This document shows positions 3,932 through 51,087 of a stretch of 64,000 nt of DNA, piece after piece. How positions within the stretch are numbered: position 1 is the first letter of the stretch; every line of letters begins with the position of its first letter. Below the pieces are notes generated by a model. That model made no database searches. It was not told the origin of the DNA and saw only the letters and a list, made by a program, of their open reading frames with translations. The stretch comes from Neorhizobium huautlense (lineage in GTDB: Bacteria > Pseudomonadota > Alphaproteobacteria > Rhizobiales > Rhizobiaceae): contig NZ_PVBM01000001.1 of NCBI RefSeq assembly GCF_002968575.1, forward strand, positions 124,001 to 188,000, read 5' to 3'. Both the position numbers and the translations under genes were made by a program.

Positions 3932-4370
3932 ATTGCCAGTTGGCCTGTAAGCCGGGTTCTGTATGGCCCCGATGCAAGCACCGGAACGTGGCAGCCATTC
4001 GTCTGGGACGACGTTTGCACATCGCCTCACGCAACCCACCCGGATGACTGGCCCGGAAACAGGCTGTAGCCTCGCTTTCGCGGGCTCGCGTCATCCCTAT
4101 TCGGTCTTGCTCCCGGTGGGGTTTACCATGCCGCCGCTGTTACCAGAGGCGCGGTGGGCTCTTACCCCACCCTTTCACCCTTACCCCGCCATCTCAGCTG
4201 CCCATCGGGCAGTTGAGAAAGCGGGGCGGTTTCCTTTCTGTGGCACTTTCCCTGGGGTCGCCCCCGCCGGACGTTATCCGGCACCGTGTTTCCGTGGAGC
4301 CCGGACTTTCCTCACCTTATCGCCTTTCGACATTGATAAAGCGCGGCTGCCCGGCCAACTGGCATGCGGT
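3932..4370 (-). ncRNA. rnpB: RNase P RNA component (bacterial class A)
   Basis: Catalytic RNA that trims 5' leaders of tRNA precursors. Read on the minus strand it contains the diagnostic GAGGAAAGTCCGGGCTCC block near the 5' end, GGTAAACCCCACCGGGAGCA in the middle and the ACAGAACCCGGCTTA block near the 3' end. The terminal GCCAGTTGGCC and GGCCAACTGGC segments pair to form the closing helix P1. Length near 437 nt is normal for Alphaproteobacteria. The 5' end is only about 30 bp from the stop codon of the upstream oxidoreductase gene, so its promoter either lies in that gene's 3' end or the two are co-transcribed. Exact ends are approximate. Confidence 0.97.
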
Positions 4371-18276: not shown

Positions 18277-18463
18277 CACTCATACACCACTTTTTAAGGG
18301 TGCGACAATTAAGATTAACAACAAATTTATTGAGCAAATTCAGCAATATGCCAGATTTAAGCTCGTGAAGCGAGGTTCGGGCAGCGGCGGTGCAGCATAG
18401 AATCTGCTTTCCAATCGACACAAAACCGACATAGACTTTAACGGTCAACGCAAGGAGGCAGAC

Positions 18464-18541
18464 ATGGGACGTACATACTCTCTGAATGTCCTGGTAGTCG
18501 GTGTAGCGTTCGTGTTCGTGGCATCTATGCTGTTCATCTGA
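18464..18541 (+). CDS. 25-residue single-pass membrane peptide
   Basis: Too short for routine gene calling, but well supported. AAGGAGG lies eight bases before ATG 18464. The product starts MGRTYSLN and then has one hydrophobic stretch of 17 residues (9-25) rich in Val/Phe with no charge, ending FI. A stand-alone transcription unit is suggested: 187 bp of AT-rich sequence upstream and a strong terminator 70 bp downstream. I do not recognise the family. Small single-helix peptides often modulate membrane complexes; that is conjecture here. Confidence 0.65.
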   Translation: MGRTYSLNVLVVGVAFVFVASMLFI

Positions 18542-18611
18542 ACGCTACAGATCCCACTACCCGGTCATAATTTTGCATCCATGACCGTTTGATATCAGCA
18601 CTTCAATTAGA

Positions 18612-18645
18612 ACGCATGCTCCTCTCGTAGAAGCATGCGTTTTTC
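18612..18645 (+). terminator. Intrinsic terminator after the 25-residue peptide
   Basis: Perfect stem ACGCATGCT (18612-18620) / AGCATGCGT (18632-18640) followed by TTTTTC on the plus strand. A second weaker hairpin, CGGTCAT / ATGACCG at 18562-18587, lies just before it. On the minus strand the stem lacks a clear T run, so it mainly serves the plus transcript although metF ends 3 bp away. Confidence 0.85.
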
Positions 18646-19546: not shown

Positions 19547-20542
19547 TTATGAGGCGTTTTGGGTTTCTGCGGGTGCGTGGGAAGCGATCAACAGCCTGCG
19601 GTCTCGTGCAAGCCAGACTGTCGCCGTTAGTGCGCCTTCCTTGCCGGAGCCGAGATCGATCGCCTCCTCCACCTCGAGCCCCACCTTGTCCAGCCACTCG
19701 GCCATGACCTGGTGAGAGAAGCCAAGCCGGATATGCGCATGATCCTCGCGCAGGTAGTCAAGCTTGTGGGGCGCCAGATCGACGATGATGATCCGGCCGC
19801 CGGGGCGCAGTACGCGGGCAGCCTCCGCGATGGCCAGTTCCGGTTGATCGAGGAAGTGCAGCACCTGATGGATCGTGATCAGATCGAAGTCCTGGCCTTC
19901 CAACGGCAGGTTCAGGATGTCGCCGTGCCGGACGGAGGCCTTGGTGATGCCGGCCTTGTCGAGATTGGCGCGTGCCACAGCGAGCATGTCACGGCTTGCG
20001 TCGATGCCGACAGCTCGGCGATAAAAATCGGACAGAAGCTGCAATATCCAGCCCGTACCCGTCCCAAGATCGAGCAGCGCATCGATTGGCGTCTTGCCGA
20101 TGAGCTTCAGCAGTGCCGCCTCGACCGCTGCATCACTCACATGCAGTCGCCGCAGTTCGTCCCACTCCGAGGCGTTGCGGCTGAAATAAGCTTGCGCCCG
20201 TTCGGCCCTCACGCGCTTGACGGCCAAAAGCCGCTCGCTGTCGCGCAACAGGACCGGATCCTCCTCCGACGCGGCAGCCAGCAGCGTACGAACCAGAGCG
20301 GCGGCCTTGCCTTCCTGTCTCAGACGGAAATAAGCCCAGGCTCCCTCCTGATAGCGGTCGATCAGCGACTCTTCGGTGAGGAGCTTGAGGTGCCGCGAAA
20401 TCCGCGGCTGCGATTGCCCGAGGATATCCGTGAGATCGGTGACCGTAAGATCGCCCTCTGCCAGTAGTGCGAGCAGGCGGAAGCGAGTGGGCTCGCCTGC
20501 CGTTTTGAGCACATCTACCAATGTATCGAGCGCGAGACCCAT
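19547..20542 (-). CDS. sahR: ArsR-family regulator fused to a SAM-methyltransferase domain (SahR-like)
   Basis: Regulator of 331 residues. An N-terminal winged helix (about 1-90, recognition helix around SQPRISRHLKLL) is joined to a class I methyltransferase fold with motif LDLGTGTGW near 157-165. SahR proteins with this fusion are known to control methionine-cycle genes in Proteobacteria, sensing S-adenosylhomocysteine. Its position ahead of metF and the matching palindromes before this gene and before metH support the name. I start at ATG 20542; an ATG at 20569 is in frame but abuts the operator and lacks a ribosome site. The methyltransferase domain probably serves as ligand sensor; whether it retains activity is unknown. 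Confidence 0.82.
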   Translation of the reverse strand: MGLALDTLVDVLKTAGEPTRFRLLALLAEGDLTVTDLTDILGQSQPRISRHLKLLTEESLIDRYQEGAWAYFRLRQEGKAAALVRTLLAAASEEDPVLLRDSERLLAVKRVRAERAQAYFSRNASEWDELRRLHVSDAAVEAALLKLIGKTPIDALLDLGTGTGWILQLLSDFYRRAVGIDASRDMLAVARANLDKAGITKASVRHGDILNLPLEGQDFDLITIHQVLHFLDQPELAIAEAARVLRPGGRIIIVDLAPHKLDYLREDHAHIRLGFSHQVMAEWLDKVGLEVEEAIDLGSGKEGALTATVWLARDRRLLIASHAPAETQNAS

Positions 20543-20569
20543 CGAAGCAGCATCCCATCCAATCAACAT

Positions 20570-20585
20570 ATAAAGATATGTTTAT
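20570..20585. promoter_or_regulatory. SahR operator of sahR-metF
   Basis: ATAAAGATATGTTTAT is an imperfect 16-bp palindrome 28 bp before the sahR start. A site differing at only a few bases (ATAAAGATGTCTTTAT) lies 38 bp before metH, and the similarity continues into a shared GTGA on one flank. The form agrees with the AT-rich SahR motif built on ATAAAGAT. Confidence 0.8.
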
Positions 20586-20637
20586 GTGATTTGCTGGCTC
20601 GACGCAAGCGAGAAACGCGTTCCATCGCCTCCACCGC

Positions 20638-20664
20638 AAAAAGAAAGGCGGCCGACAGGCCGCC
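20638..20664 (-). terminator. Terminator of the chemoreceptor gene
   Basis: Stem GGCGGCC / GGCCGCC with a four-base loop, followed on the minus strand by TTTCTTTTT. It begins 25 bp after the chemoreceptor stop codon and also insulates the sahR promoter. Confidence 0.85.
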
Positions 20665-20689
20665 CCGTTAGTGGAATTGAGATTGGATG

Positions 20690-22972
20690 TCAGAACTCTT
20701 CCCATTCATTTGCGGCCTGAGCTACGGCCGCATTGCCGTGAGAAATCGCCGGCCGCGCCCGCAGAGGGCGGTGCGATGTTTGTACGACCTGTCGGGCGAC
20801 CGCCGATGGAGGAGCGGCCGCGACACGACGCCCACCGGCATTTTCGCCGAGCTGGAAGTGGGACAACAAATCGTTCAGCTTGTCGCTTTCCTGTGCCAGC
20901 CCCGCACCCGCGGCATTCATCTCTTCAACCATCGCGGCATTCTGCTGTGTCGACTGATCCATGTGATTGACGGCAGTATTGACCTCGGCCAAGCCGACCG
21001 ACTGTTCCTGCGCCGCAATCGCGATGGCGTCCATATGGGTGGTCACGCTCTGGACAAGCTGCTCGATCACGCCCAGTCCCTCGCCCGTATCGTTGACCAG
21101 TTTCACGCCCTCACCGACGGCTACAGCAGAACTGGAGATCAGAGCCTTGATCTCCTTGGCAGCATTGGCGGACCGCTGCGCAAGCTCGCGGACCTCCTGC
21201 GCGACGACCGCAAAGCCCTTACCCGCCTCACCCGCACGCGCTGCCTCCACACCCGCATTCAGCGCCAGAAGGTTCGTTTGGAAGGCGATCTCGTCGATGA
21301 CGCCGATGATCTGGCTGATCTGTTGCGACGACTTCTCGATCCGCTCCATGGCCATGACGGCATTACGGACCACGTGGCCGGACTGGTCGGCCCGGGCGCG
21401 GGCATCGCGCACGACATCACGAGCTTCGGCAGTGCGCTTGGAGGTGGCGATCACGTTCGAGGTGATCTCCTCGAGCGCTGCGGCGGTTTCCTCCAGCGAA
21501 GCCGCCTGCTGTTCGGTGCGCTTGGATAGGTTGTCCGAAGCACTCGAAATCTCGCGCGACCCGCTGGTAACCGTCGAAACCGAACTACCGACGCTGAGCA
21601 GCGCTTCGCGAAGCTGACGCACGGACGTGTTGAAGTCCTGCCGCAGCGCCTCGAACTGCGGGGCGAGAGGTTCGTGGACTTCACAGAGCATGTCGCCGGC
21701 TGCAAGCCGCCGCAGGCTGGCTGCAAGTGCACCGGTCGCCTGGTTGAGACGTCCTTCGGCTTCGACTTCGGTACTGCGCTGCATCTCGATACGTTCCGCC
21801 TCGGCGCGGCGACGATTGGCTTCGGCTTCCGCTTCTAGCTCCCTGTTCCGGCCTGCCGCGTCCCGGAAAACCTCGACCGAACGTGCCATCTCTCCCACCA
21901 CGTCGCTGCGCTCCGCGTAAGGAATAGCGGCGGCGATGTCGCCCTCGGCCAAGTTGGCCATGCAATCGCCGATCTTGCGTATCGAGCCTGACAGGCCGCG
22001 GGTAATCATCACGCTGAAAGCGATCGAGATCGCCATGAAGATGCCGAGAGCCGATAACGTCAGCTGAAGGGTCGAAGACGCATCGTTCCATTTTTGGGCG
22101 GCCAGACCGCCGATCTTGCCGGCATTTTCCTGTATAAGTCCCGCCACGAAGTCCCGTCGTTTCACCATGGCTCCAATCCATGCGTCGAAATCGCCGGGCG
22201 CCGGGGTGTAGGGCTTGAGGGAATCCATTGCCTTTATCGTCTTGTCGATCAGCTGACCTTCCACCCCTTGCAGGAACGTATCGTATCTTTGCAGCAGATC
22301 GGGCGGCGTAAACTGGCGGAAGGCTTGTTCATAGATGCGGATCTGATGTTTGCCGTGCCCGAACTTGGCCAGCTCCTCGGCAGTCAGCACACCATTGCGC
22401 GTATATTGTTGGCCGATACGATTGATGATCAAATAGCCTTCGTTCACCTGCATGAAGGCGTGGTAGCCCTGCACGGCACGCGAGAGTTCCTGATTGTCGA
22501 TGAGGTTGCCGACCCGCCCTGCAAGCTCGAGGCCAGAGGCTGATATCGGTTGAAGATAGCGCAGCGACATGAGCGGATCGGCACTGCCCGCATCGATGGC
22601 GGAACGGTATTCGGGAAGCTTGCCCCAGCGCTCGTCCAGGGATGACTTGGTCTTTGCAAGCCCGGCGTCATTTATGCCGAAGGCAACGGTCTTGTCATAG
22701 ATCTCGAGAAGCGCTCGGTGCGCGCTATCGGCCTTGACCCTTATATCCGACCTCGTGGCTGCCGTAGCGGCACCCTCTACAGGCATGACCAGCATCAACT
22801 CACCGCCGGCACGGGCGAGCTTCTCGAGCGCCAATGCCCGCTCGAGTTCCCGATAGCTCGCATAGGAATTCCAACTGACAAACGCTCCGAGACAGACCAC
22901 CGCCAGCAATGGCACCAGAGCCAAAAGCGTCAGCGAAGCGCGAAAAGGCAGCCGCTCGATCAAGCGCACCAT
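20690..22972 (-). CDS. Methyl-accepting chemotaxis protein
   Basis: Chemoreceptor of 760 residues. One membrane helix (about 13-35), a large helical periplasmic sensor (36-305) resembling the nitrate/nitrite-sensing NIT type, a second membrane helix (about 306-327), HAMP (328-380), a long coiled coil, and the signalling domain with the conserved hairpin tip [21 protein letters not shown]. The C-terminal residues EWEEF form a WxxF-type tether for the methylation enzymes CheR/CheB, after a flexible linker. GAGGG eight bases before ATG supports the start. No other chemotaxis gene is nearby. Ligand unknown. Confidence 0.93.
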
Positions 22973-45902: not shown

Positions 45903-48900
45903 TCAGGCGGCATCCTCGACCAGCGAGGAAGGCACATAGTTGAGGACCGGGCCGAGCCAGCGCTCGACCTCCTCAACCGACATGCCCTTGCGCTTGGCAT
46001 AGTCCTCGACCTGGTCGCGCTCGACCTTGGCAACTCCGAAATAATACGAAGCGGGATGGCCGATATAGAGGCCCGAGACCGAGGAACCGGGCCACATGGC
46101 GTAGCTGTCGGTAAGCGCCACACCGGTTGCGTTCTCGGCGTCCAGCAGCCGGAAAAGCGTCGACTTTTCGGTATGATCCGGCTGTGCCGGATAGCCGGGC
46201 GCCGGACGGATGCCGGCATAGGCTTCGGTGACCAGTTCGTCGGAGGAAAAATTCTCGTCCGGCGCATAGCCCCAGAATTCCTTGCGCACGCGCTCGTGCA
46301 TGCATTCCGCAAAGGCTTCCGCGAAACGGTCCGCCAGCGCCTTCACCAGGATGGACGAATAGTCGTCGTTGGCCCGCTCGAAGCGCTCGGCGATGGCGAT
46401 CTCCTCGATACCCGCGGTAACGACGAAGCCGCCCACATAGTCCTGAACGCCGCTCGCCTGCGGCGCCACGAAGTCCGAAAGCGCCACATTCGGCCGCCCG
46501 TCCCGCTTCGACAGTTGCTGACGCAGCGTGAAGAAGGTCGCAAGCTCTTGGCTCCGGCTGTCGTCGGTAAAGAGGCGGATGTCATCGCCGACCGTATTGG
46601 CCGGCCAGAAGCCGATCACCGCCCGCGGCCTGAACCACTTTTCCGCGATGATCTTGTCGAGCATCGCCTGTGCATCGGCATAGAGCTGGCGCGCCGCCTC
46701 GCCCTGAGCTTCGTCCTCCAGGATCGCAGGGAAACGCCCCTTCAGTTCCCAGGTCTGGAAGAAGGGGGTCCAGTCGATATACTTCGCAAGTTCGGCAAGA
46801 TCGTAGGTTTCGAACACTTTTGTGCCGATGAACTGCGGCCTGACCGGTTTGTAGTCGGTCCAGTCGAGCTTTTCCGGATTGTCGCGGGCACGGGCGATCG
46901 GCAAACGGGTCTTTTCCGCTTCCGAGCGGGCGTGAGCAGCGGCCACTTTGCTGTATTCCGCCTGAATGGTGCTGATGTAGTTCTGCTTTGCCTCCGGCGA
47001 CAGCAGCGAAGATACGACTCCCACGGCGCGGCTTGCGTCGGTAACGTAGATCGCCTGGCCCCGATCGTAACGCGGATGGATCTTGACCGCAGTGTGGACA
47101 CGGCTGGTCGTAGCGCCGCCGATCAGCAGTGGAATATCGAAGCCCTGACGCTCCATCTCCGAAGCCACGTGCGCCATCTCGTCAAGCGACGGCGTGATGA
47201 GGCCGGAAAGCCCGATGATGTCGACCTTCTCGGCAATCGCTGTTTCCAGGATCTTGGTCGAGGGCACCATGACACCGAGATCGATAATCTCGTAATTGTT
47301 GCAGGCAAGCACGACGCCGACGATGTTCTTGCCGATATCGTGGACGTCGCCCTTCACGGTTGCCATCAGCACCTTGCCGGCAGACTTCCTCTGGTCGCCA
47401 CCCTTCAGCCGCTTCTCTTCCTCCATATACGGCAGCAGCACCGCCACCGCCTGCTTCATGACCCGCGCCGACTTCACCACCTGCGGCAGGAACATCTTGC
47501 CCGAGCCAAAAAGATCGCCAACCACGTTCATGCCGGCCATCAGCGGCCCTTCGATGACATCGAGCGGACGCGTGGCCTGCTGTCTCGCCTCTTCGGTATC
47601 CTGTTCGATGAAATCGGTGTTGCCGATGACCAGCGCATGGGAAAGACGCTTTTCGACTGGCCATTCGCGCCAGGCGAGATCCTGCGCCTTGGCTTCCTTG
47701 GTGCCGGTGCCGCGATAGCGCTCGGCGATATCGAGCATCCGCTCCGTCGCATCGTCGCGCCGGTTGAGCACGACATCCTCGCAGGCTTCACGGAGCTCCG
47801 GGTCTATGTTCTCGTAGATTGCCAGCTGCCCGGCATTGACGATGCCCATGTCCATGCCCGCCTGGATGGCATGGTAGAGAAATACGGCATGCATCGCCTC
47901 GCGCACCGGCTCGTTGCCGCGGAAGGAAAAGGAGAGGTTCGAAACGCCGCCGGAGATATGTACCAGCGGCATCCGCTCGCGGATCGTTCGGGTCGCCTCG
48001 ATGAAGGCAAGTCCGTAGCCGTTATGTTCCTCCATCCCCGTGGCGACCGCAAAAATGTTCGGGTCGAAGATGATGTCTTCCGGCGGAAAGTCCGCCTCTT
48101 CTGTCAACAGCTTGTAAGCGCGCTCGCTGATTGCCACCTTCCGCTCGTAGGTGTCGGCCTGCCCCTGTTCGTCGAATGCCATGACGACCACGGCAGCACC
48201 GTAATTGCGAAGCAGACGCGCCTGGGCCAGGAACTTCTCCTCGCCTTCCTTGAGCGAGATCGAATTGACGACGGGCTTGCCTTGCACACACTTGAGGCCG
48301 GCCTCCATAATCTCGAACTTCGAGGAATCGAGCATTACCGGAACACGGGCGATATCCGGTTCGGCGGCGATGAGGTTCAGGAAATCCACCATCGCCTTTT
48401 CAGAATCGATAAGCCCCTCGTCCATGTTGATGTCGATCACGGACGCGCCGTTTTCCACCTGATCCCTCGCAACGGCGAGAGCCGCCGTAAGATCGCCAGC
48501 GGTGATCAGCTTGCGGAATTTTGCCGAGCCGGTGACGTTGGTGCGCTCGCCGACGTTCACGAAAGGGATGTCCTTCGTGAAGACGAAGGGTTCGAGGCCG
48601 GCAAGCGACATGAAAGGCTTGTGCTCGGGGACTTCACGCGGCCTGTGCGGGGCAACCGCTTCGGCAATCGCGCGTATATGCTCCGGCGTCGAGCCGCAGC
48701 AGCCGCCGACGACATTGACGAGTCCCTCTTCGGCAAATCCCCGGATCTGCCGCGCCATATCGTCGGGCGTCTCGTCGTAGCGACCGAACTCGTTCGGCAG
48801 GCCCGCATTCGGATAGGCAGAGATGAATGTGTCGGCGACCGCTGAAAGCTCTTGCAGATGCGGCCGCATCGCGTCGGCGCCGAGTGCGCAGTTCAGCCCG

Positions 48901-49667
48901 ATCGTGAAAGGCTTGGCGTGGCGGACCGAATACCAGAAGGCCGATGGTGTCTGGCCGGACAGCGTACGCCCCGACAGGTCGGTGATCGTGCCGGAGATCA
49001 TCACCGGCAGGTGAATACCCTTTTCTGCAAACCGCTCGGCACAGGCGAAAATGGCCGCCTTGGCGTTCAGCGTGTCGAAGATCGTCTCGATCAGGATGAT
49101 ATCGGCACCGCCATCGACGAGCCCGTCGATCTGCTCACCATACGCAATTCGCAGATCATCGAATGTCACCGCGCGGTAACCGGGATTGTTGACATCAGGC
49201 GAGATCGACGCCGTGCGATTGGTCGGGCCGATGGCGCCGGCTACGAAACGGCGGCGGCCATCTTCTTGCTCTGCGCGAAGCGCCGCGCGTCGCGCCAGGC
49301 GGGCACCGTCGCGGTTCAGATCGTAAACCGCATTCTCCATCTGGTAATCGGCCTGGGCGATCCGGGTCGAGGAGAAGGTATTGGTCTCGATGATGTCGGC
49401 CCCGGCCTTGGCGTAGCGATAGTGGATCTCTTCGATCGCCTGCGGCTGGGAAAGGATCAGGAGATCGTTGTTGCCCTGCTGATGACAGGCGCATCCGATA
49501 AAGCGCTCTCCGCGGAACTGCTCCTCGTCGAAGCCGAGGCCCTGAATTTGAGTCCCCATGGCGCCGTCGATAACAAGGATTTTCTCCCTGGCGGCAGCCT
49601 GAAGCGCGGCAAGAATTTCGGCGCCATCGCGGCGGGCATCTTCCGGACCAAACAGATCATCCAACAT
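45903..49667 (-). CDS. metH: Cobalamin-dependent methionine synthase
   Basis: Transfers methyl from 5-methyl-tetrahydrofolate to homocysteine, 1254 residues (E. coli 1227). Domains in order: homocysteine-binding barrel with zinc Cys residues ([20 protein letters not shown]), methyl-tetrahydrofolate barrel ([13 protein letters not shown]), helical cap, B12 domain with the cobalt-ligating His in [11 protein letters not shown], and the C-terminal AdoMet reactivation domain ending near the [12 protein letters not shown] and [11 protein letters not shown] blocks. I start at ATG 49667 ([10 protein letters not shown]), 38 bp after a SahR-type palindrome; the longer open frame upstream crosses that operator and is not coding. 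Works with MetF encoded at 18.6 kb. Confidence 0.97.
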
Positions 49668-49704: not shown

Positions 49705-49720
49705 ATAAAGATGTCTTTAT
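49705..49720. promoter_or_regulatory. SahR operator of metH
   Basis: ATAAAGATGTCTTTAT, a 16-bp palindrome with one mismatch, matches the site before sahR-metF at 13 of 16 positions and shares the flanking GTGA. It lies 38 bp before metH and about 110 bp before the divergent sugar-isomerase gene. Confidence 0.82.
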
Positions 49721-49830
49721 GTGAAGTCCAGCGCGGTTGACGCATTCTGTCCAAGTTTTGCCGATGACAGACTATTGCGGGGACGTTATAGCCTCCAGTC
49801 AGAAACGACGAGTGCATCAGGGAGACCAGC

Positions 49831-51087
49831 ATGAGCGACGGCGGAGCGACGGCAGAAAAATGGAACAATCTTCCATACCATCGCCGTTGGCTGCTCGATC
49901 AGGCCGACGGACTTTTCGATTTCTTCCAGTACCGTGCGGTCAATCCAGCCGGCGGCTTTTTCGACCTCGATGACACCGGCCTTCCCTTGGGCGGAGCCAA
50001 TCCTACCCGCGGTATCCATGCATCCGCTCGTATGGTGCATTGTTTTTCGATCGGCTACCTGCTCGGCCGTCCAGGCGCAGGTGAGATCATCGATCACGGC
50101 ATGCGCTACCTCTGGGAGCGGCATCGAGACAGCGAGCACGGCGGCTATTTCTGGCAGGTCAACGACGACGGCGCCGTGGATGCCGCCAAACAGGGTTACG
50201 GACACGCCTTCGTCCTGCTCGCCGCATCCTCTGCCAAGGTCGCCGGCCATCCGCTCGCAGACAAGATGCTGGCGGATATCAGCGAAATTCTCGATACGAA
50301 ATTCTGGGAAGCCTCGCACGGTGCGATTGCGGAAGAATTCAATCGCGATTGGTCGCCGATCGACGGCGGCGGCTATCGCGGGCAAAACTCCAACATGCAT
50401 CTTACCGAGGCCCTGATGGCCGCCTACGAGGCGACCGGAGAGAAGACCTACCTCGCCAAGGCGGAGAGTATCGCGGATCTTGTCATCTGTCGTGTGGCCG
50501 GCAGCGTCGGCTTCCGCGTCGCCGAGCATTTCGACCAGGAATGGACCATCGACAAGTCCTATTACCACCCCGACGAGATGTTCCGCCCGGCCGGCACCAC
50601 GCCAGGGCACTGGCTGGAATGGGCACGTCTCCTGCTCCAGTTGTGGGTGCTGGGGGACAAACGGCACGGCTGGATGCCGGATGCCGCAAAATCACTCTTC
50701 GTCCAGTCCATGTCACTGGGCTGGGACAGGGAGAAAGGCGGCTTTTTCTATACGCTCGACTGGAATGACAATCCGGCCAAGACCAACAAGCTCTGGTGGC
50801 CGATGTGCGAAGGTGCCGGCGCGGCCCATTTCCTCAATGAACATCTTCCCGCAGACCGCTTCTACGAAGACAGCTATCGCCTGATCTGGGGCACGATCGC
50901 CAACCGCTTCCTCGATCATGAGAACGGCGGCTGGCACGAAGAACTGACGGAAGATCTTATCCCGGCCCACACGCTCTTTCCGGGTAAGGGCGATATCTAC
51001 CACGCATTGCAGGCATGCCTCATCCCGCTGTTCCCGGCCACCGGCAGCCTGACGAAGGTGATTGCGGAAGCCAAGGGGCCTATCTGA
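49831..51087 (+). CDS. AGE-family epimerase/isomerase (YihS/mannose-isomerase-like)
   Basis: Alpha-barrel sugar isomerase of 418 residues, cytoplasmic. The (alpha/alpha)6 repeats and blocks [63 protein letters not shown] and [19 protein letters not shown] carry the His and Glu residues used by the family. It resembles bacterial mannose isomerases and YihS rather than N-acylglucosamine 2-epimerase. CAGGGAG supports ATG 49831. No sugar transporter is adjacent, so the sugar is not evident. Confidence 0.88.

What the first reader, a model, noticed from the sequence alone, without database searches (positions are those of the whole stretch)
20542..20589. SahR palindrome shared by sahR-metF and metH, 29 kb apart
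ATAAAGATATGTTTAT at 20570-20585 and ATAAAGATGTCTTTAT at 49705-49720 are near-identical and each sits under 40 bp from a start codon. MetF makes the methyl donor that MetH uses, so one repressor appears to set both steps of the methionine cycle. Site sequence and regulator architecture agree with the SahR regulon described for Proteobacteria.
Basis: partly seen in the sequence, partly recalled or inferred. Interest (0 to 1): 0.6.

Follow-up and report, generated by a model that had tools for sequence, protein, structure and literature searches.

The report
SahR operator sites of methionine cycle

Summary
ATAAAGATATGTTTAT (20570-20585) lies 27 bp upstream of an ArsR-HTH/SAM-methyltransferase fusion gene (sahR, 20542-19547, minus strand), which is followed 11 bp later by metF. 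ATAAAGATGTCTTTAT (49705-49720) lies 37 bp upstream of metH. A scan of the whole 5.7 Mb genome gives six near-perfect sites against one for a reversed control pattern. Five are upstream of sahR-metF, metH, metK, ahcY and bhmT; the sixth looks like chance. The sahR site is present in all 80 named relatives and all 29 other order-level loci fetched. The other four sites are conserved within the genus (bhmT lost in 2 of 13). Across 150 genomes of the order the palindrome is in excess only where sahR is present. In sahR promoters a conserved CTTG -35 box sits so that the palindrome covers the -10, which suggests repression by occlusion. The same regulator, motif type and targets are published for Rhizobiales (PMC4239095) and Ensifer aridi (PMC8877191). 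The effector, S-adenosylhomocysteine, is carried over from Desulfovibrio and was not testable here. Already known; low interest.

The parts
20570..20585 (.). SahR operator of sahR-metF (core of a 20-bp palindrome)
   Evidence: Exact sequence; conserved in 80/80 named relatives and 29/29 other order-level loci
20580..20608 (-). Inferred sahR promoter: -35 CTTGCG at 20608-20603, 17-bp spacer, -10 ATAAAC at 20585-20580 inside the operator
   Evidence: Read; cTTGc column block conserved in 79 distinct sahR upstream sequences. The sigma-70 scan found no match at its thresholds, so the promoter is inferred
19547..20542 (-). sahR, 331 aa: ArsR-family HTH (residues 18-61) plus Methyltransf_11 domain (157-253)
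   Evidence: single full-length copy in the genome
18648..19535 (-). metF, methylenetetrahydrofolate reductase, 295 aa, 11 bp after sahR
   Evidence: TIGR00676 318 bits, above its cutoff of 293.7; same-strand metF downstream of sahR in 80/80 relatives
49705..49720 (.). SahR operator of metH
   Evidence: Exact sequence; conserved in 17/17 genus metH upstream regions at 12-14 of 14 arm positions
45903..49667 (-). metH, B12-dependent methionine synthase, 1254 aa
   Evidence: NF007024 2170 bits; translation
20645..20666 (-). Terminator-like hairpin between the upstream chemotaxis-receptor gene (20690-22972) and sahR-metF

Best explanation
The palindromes are operators of SahR, an autoregulated ArsR-family repressor encoded at 19547-20542 whose C-terminal domain is a SAM-methyltransferase fold used as a sensor. 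When S-adenosylhomocysteine (SAH) is low, the SahR dimer sits on the palindrome, which covers the -10 region of the sahR-metF promoter, and blocks transcription of sahR-metF, metH, metK, ahcY and bhmT. When SAH builds up, it binds the methyltransferase-like domain, SahR leaves the DNA, and the enzymes that clear SAH and remake methionine and SAM are induced. Shown here by computation: site sequence, position, regulon membership, conservation, co-occurrence with sahR, domain architecture. Inferred: binding, repression, -10 occlusion, SAH as effector (the last shown experimentally in Desulfovibrio, as cited in PMC4239095).
For: Genome scan: near-perfect sites upstream of sahR-metF, metH, metK, ahcY and bhmT, 6 against 1 control, with gene identities above curated cutoffs. 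Footprint: sahR site 80/80 plus 29/29; metH 17/17, ahcY 19/19, metK 19/19, bhmT 11/13 in the genus at 12 or more of 14 arm positions, almost never reached by shuffles. Palindrome excess over control 1.74 per genome with sahR and 0.08 without, Mann-Whitney p = 2e-5, uncorrected for phylogeny. HTH plus Methyltransf_11; SAM-binding motif DLGTGTG and the following acidic residue D181 conserved in at least 97.5% of 81 proteins, and no cysteine in 78 of 81, so no thiolate metal site. Conserved CTTG box 23 bp upstream places the -10 in the palindrome. Published regulon identical in genes.
Against: No binding, expression or effector data for this organism. The sigma-70 scan found no promoter above threshold at either site. 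The operator-promoter arrangement seems to differ between targets. The experimentally studied Desulfovibrio SahR was not available for direct comparison.
Confidence: 0.94

Rival explanations
1. Same regulator and regulon, but the effector is SAM, the SAM:SAH ratio or another methyl-cycle metabolite rather than SAH.
For: The sensor domain is a generic SAM/SAH-binding fold; SamR of Xanthomonadales, a distant homolog, is suggested to sense SAM.
Against: ahcY, the SAH-removing enzyme, is in the regulon, as in SAH-responsive regulons; in PMC4239095 ahcY regulation goes with SahR and not with SamR.
Confidence: 0.06
2. A generic ArsR metal or oxidant sensor whose site resembles the SahR operator.
For: The N-terminal domain matches the ArsR/SmtB metalloregulator subfamily (NF033788).
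Against: No cysteines in this protein or in 78 of 81 homologs; a methyltransferase domain fused; the regulon is the SAM cycle, not metal export.
Confidence: 0.01
3. The two palindromes are chance AT-rich repeats.
For: At up to 3 mismatches there is no genome-wide excess.
Against: Excess at up to 1 mismatch, positions upstream of functionally linked genes, and conservation.
Confidence: 0.005

Closest known systems
SahR regulon of Rhizobiales (Leyn et al. 2014, PMC4239095; original description Novichkov et al. 2014)
   Same: ArsR-family regulator, 20-bp palindromic operator, targets sahR, metF, metH, metK, ahcY, bhmT
   Different: Nothing of substance; a further genome, most similar in SahR to Neorhizobium
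SahR of Ensifer aridi LMR001 (PMC8877191)
   Same: Conserved operator upstream of sahR, ahcY, metH, bhmT, metK; higher sahR promoter activity in the deletion strain supports autoregulation
   Different: Studied genetically there; only sequence evidence here
SamR of Xanthomonadales (PMC4239095)
   Same: Distant SahR homolog controlling methionine genes
   Different: 24-bp palindrome and a larger regulon without ahcY
SAM_alpha (SAM-II) riboswitch RF00521
   Same: Controls methionine genes in the same genome (upstream of metA-like and metZ/metY-like genes)
   Different: RNA element on de novo methionine synthesis, not the SAM cycle

Membership tests
SahR | ArsR-type HTH fused to a SAM-methyltransferase-like sensor domain | tested here: met
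   PF01022 residues 18-61 and PF08241 residues 157-253
SahR | Palindromic operator in front of its own gene | tested here: met
   27 bp upstream; conserved in 80/80 and 29/29 loci
SahR | Regulon covers the SAM cycle: ahcY, metH, metF, metK | tested here: met
   Sites upstream of all of these (metF through the sahR-metF operon), plus bhmT
SahR | Palindrome occurrence tied to presence of sahR across genomes | tested here: met
   Excess 1.74 with sahR (137 genomes) and 0.08 without (13 genomes)
SahR | Binding released by S-adenosylhomocysteine | not testable with these tools
   Needs a binding assay; demonstrated in Desulfovibrio according to PMC4239095
SahR | Orthology to the experimentally characterised Desulfovibrio protein | not tested
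   That sequence was not retrieved; the genome-contig scan kept only close relatives
ArsR metal sensor | Cysteine metal-binding site | tested here: not met
   No Cys in the window protein and in 78 of 81 sequences compared

The most novel reading that the evidence does not exclude
The conserved SAM-binding motif in SahR might still support methyl transfer or SAM binding, so that the repressor reads the SAM:SAH ratio or acts as an enzyme as well as a sensor in rhizobia.
Probability: 0.06. Interest if true: 0.4.

Novelty: already known. Interest (0 to 1): 0.12.

Why it matters
It confirms, for another rhizobial genome, a compact SAH-responsive circuit that ties methyl-donor production (MetF), methionine regeneration (MetH, BhmT), SAM synthesis (MetK) and SAH removal (AhcY) to one repressor. 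The practical value is correct annotation of the ArsR-methyltransferase gene as sahR and of its five operators.

Tried and rejected
A sixth genome hit, ATAAAGAAGTTTTTAT at G000:C91:215356, lies between a dihydrodipicolinate-synthase-like gene and a substrate-binding-protein gene, not near methionine genes; the control expects about one such hit, so I treated it as chance without testing its conservation. Searches at up to 3 mismatches gave no signal over control. I tested whether the bhmT site could drive the corrinoid/pterin methyltransferase genes some 7-10 kb downstream on the same contig; the longest ORFs between them lie on the opposite strand, so they probably do not form one operon. Sigma-70 scans found no promoter at either site. 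The original SahR paper is not held. A search hit suggesting a Rhizobium etli sahR mention had no such word in the main text. No structure prediction was run, because domain HMMs already settled the architecture.

Full report
Observation. Both palindromes are present at the stated coordinates. The first is 27 bp upstream of the ATG at 20542 of an ArsR-HTH/methyltransferase gene. The second is 37 bp upstream of the metH ATG at 49667. metF (ATG 19535) follows sahR after 11 bp on the same strand, so its control by the first site assumes co-transcription. A terminator-like hairpin at 20666-20645 separates this unit from the chemotaxis-receptor gene upstream.

Regulon test. With at most one mismatch to ATAAAGANNTNTTTAT the 5.73 Mb genome has six sites on a strand, against one for the reversed control pattern. 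With up to three mismatches there is no excess over control, so only near-perfect sites are informative. The six are: sahR-metF; metH; metK (C69, 76 bp from its start); ahcY (C135, 117 bp); bhmT (C55, 30 bp); and one site on C91 between unrelated genes, which I regard as chance. Gene identities rest on NCBIfam matches above the curated cutoffs: MetF TIGR00676, MetH NF007024, AhcY TIGR00936, MetK TIGR01034, BhmT NF005718.

Footprint. The sahR palindrome, at 13-14 of 14 arm positions, is found in all 80 named rhizobial relatives; shuffled sequences reach 7-10. All 29 other sahR loci fetched from across the order carry it at 12-14 of 14. In the genus, metH 17/17, ahcY 19/19, metK 19/19 and bhmT 11/13 carry a site, at a nearly constant distance from the start for most of them. 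metF lies downstream of sahR on the same strand in 80/80 relatives.

Dependence on the regulator. In 150 genomes of the order, 137 carry a SahR homolog and 13 do not, by my cut. Palindrome counts minus control counts average 1.74 with sahR and 0.08 without; Mann-Whitney p = 2e-5. The p value is not corrected for relatedness, and a few genomes counted as lacking sahR are incomplete.

Regulator and mechanism. The protein has an ArsR HTH (residues 18-61) and a class I methyltransferase domain (157-253). DLGTGTG and D181 of the SAM-binding site are conserved in at least 97.5% of 81 proteins, and 78 of the 81 contain no cysteine, which rules out the usual thiolate metal site of ArsR sensors. In 79 distinct sahR upstream sequences a CTTG block is conserved 23 bp before the palindrome. 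In the window this is CTTGCG (20608-20603), a 17-bp spacer, then ATAAAC (20585-20580) inside the operator. This fits repression by covering the -10 box; it is an inference, and the sigma-70 scan did not call it. That SAH is the effector comes from Desulfovibrio work cited in PMC4239095 and was not tested here.

Comparison with the literature. PMC4239095 reports SahR regulons in 11 of 15 Rhizobiales genomes, with a 20-bp palindrome and a core of sahR, ahcY, metH, metF and metK, and bhmT as a less conserved member. [quoted passage not shown] The present genome reproduces this set. It also has two SAM_alpha riboswitches, upstream of a metA-like and a metZ/metY-like gene, again as described for Rhizobiaceae.

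Verdict. Observation confirmed, interpretation supported, already known; interest 0.12.

Noticed in passing
window 18443-18641, + strand: Rfam match to the Rhizobiales sRNA Atu_C9 (RF02503, 101.8 bits), convergent with metF and ending 6 bp from the metF stop; possible 3' overlap with the sahR-metF transcript.
   Followed up: no
window 3932-4362, - strand: Bacterial RNase P class A RNA (RF00010, 320 bits).
   Followed up: no
window 49705-49831: The metH operator lies in the intergenic region shared with a divergent 418-aa gene starting at 49831 (AGE-family epimerase by recall, not scanned), about 110 bp away; whether SahR affects it was not tested.
   Followed up: no
L288 and L289 (G000:C72:43423-43500 and C69:190212-190290): Two SAM_alpha riboswitches upstream of metA-like and metZ/metY-like genes: RNA control of de novo synthesis next to SahR control of the SAM cycle.
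   Followed up: partly
L290 (G000:C55:58500-72500): bhmT and its SahR site lie right after a glycine-betaine-type ABC transporter ATPase gene; corrinoid-protein and pterin-binding genes resembling parts of MetH lie about 7-10 kb further on.
   Followed up: partly
L268 and L270 (bhmT upstream in G154 and G162): Two genus members with an orthologous bhmT have no recognisable SahR palindrome in front of it: lineage-specific loss of regulation.
   Followed up: no
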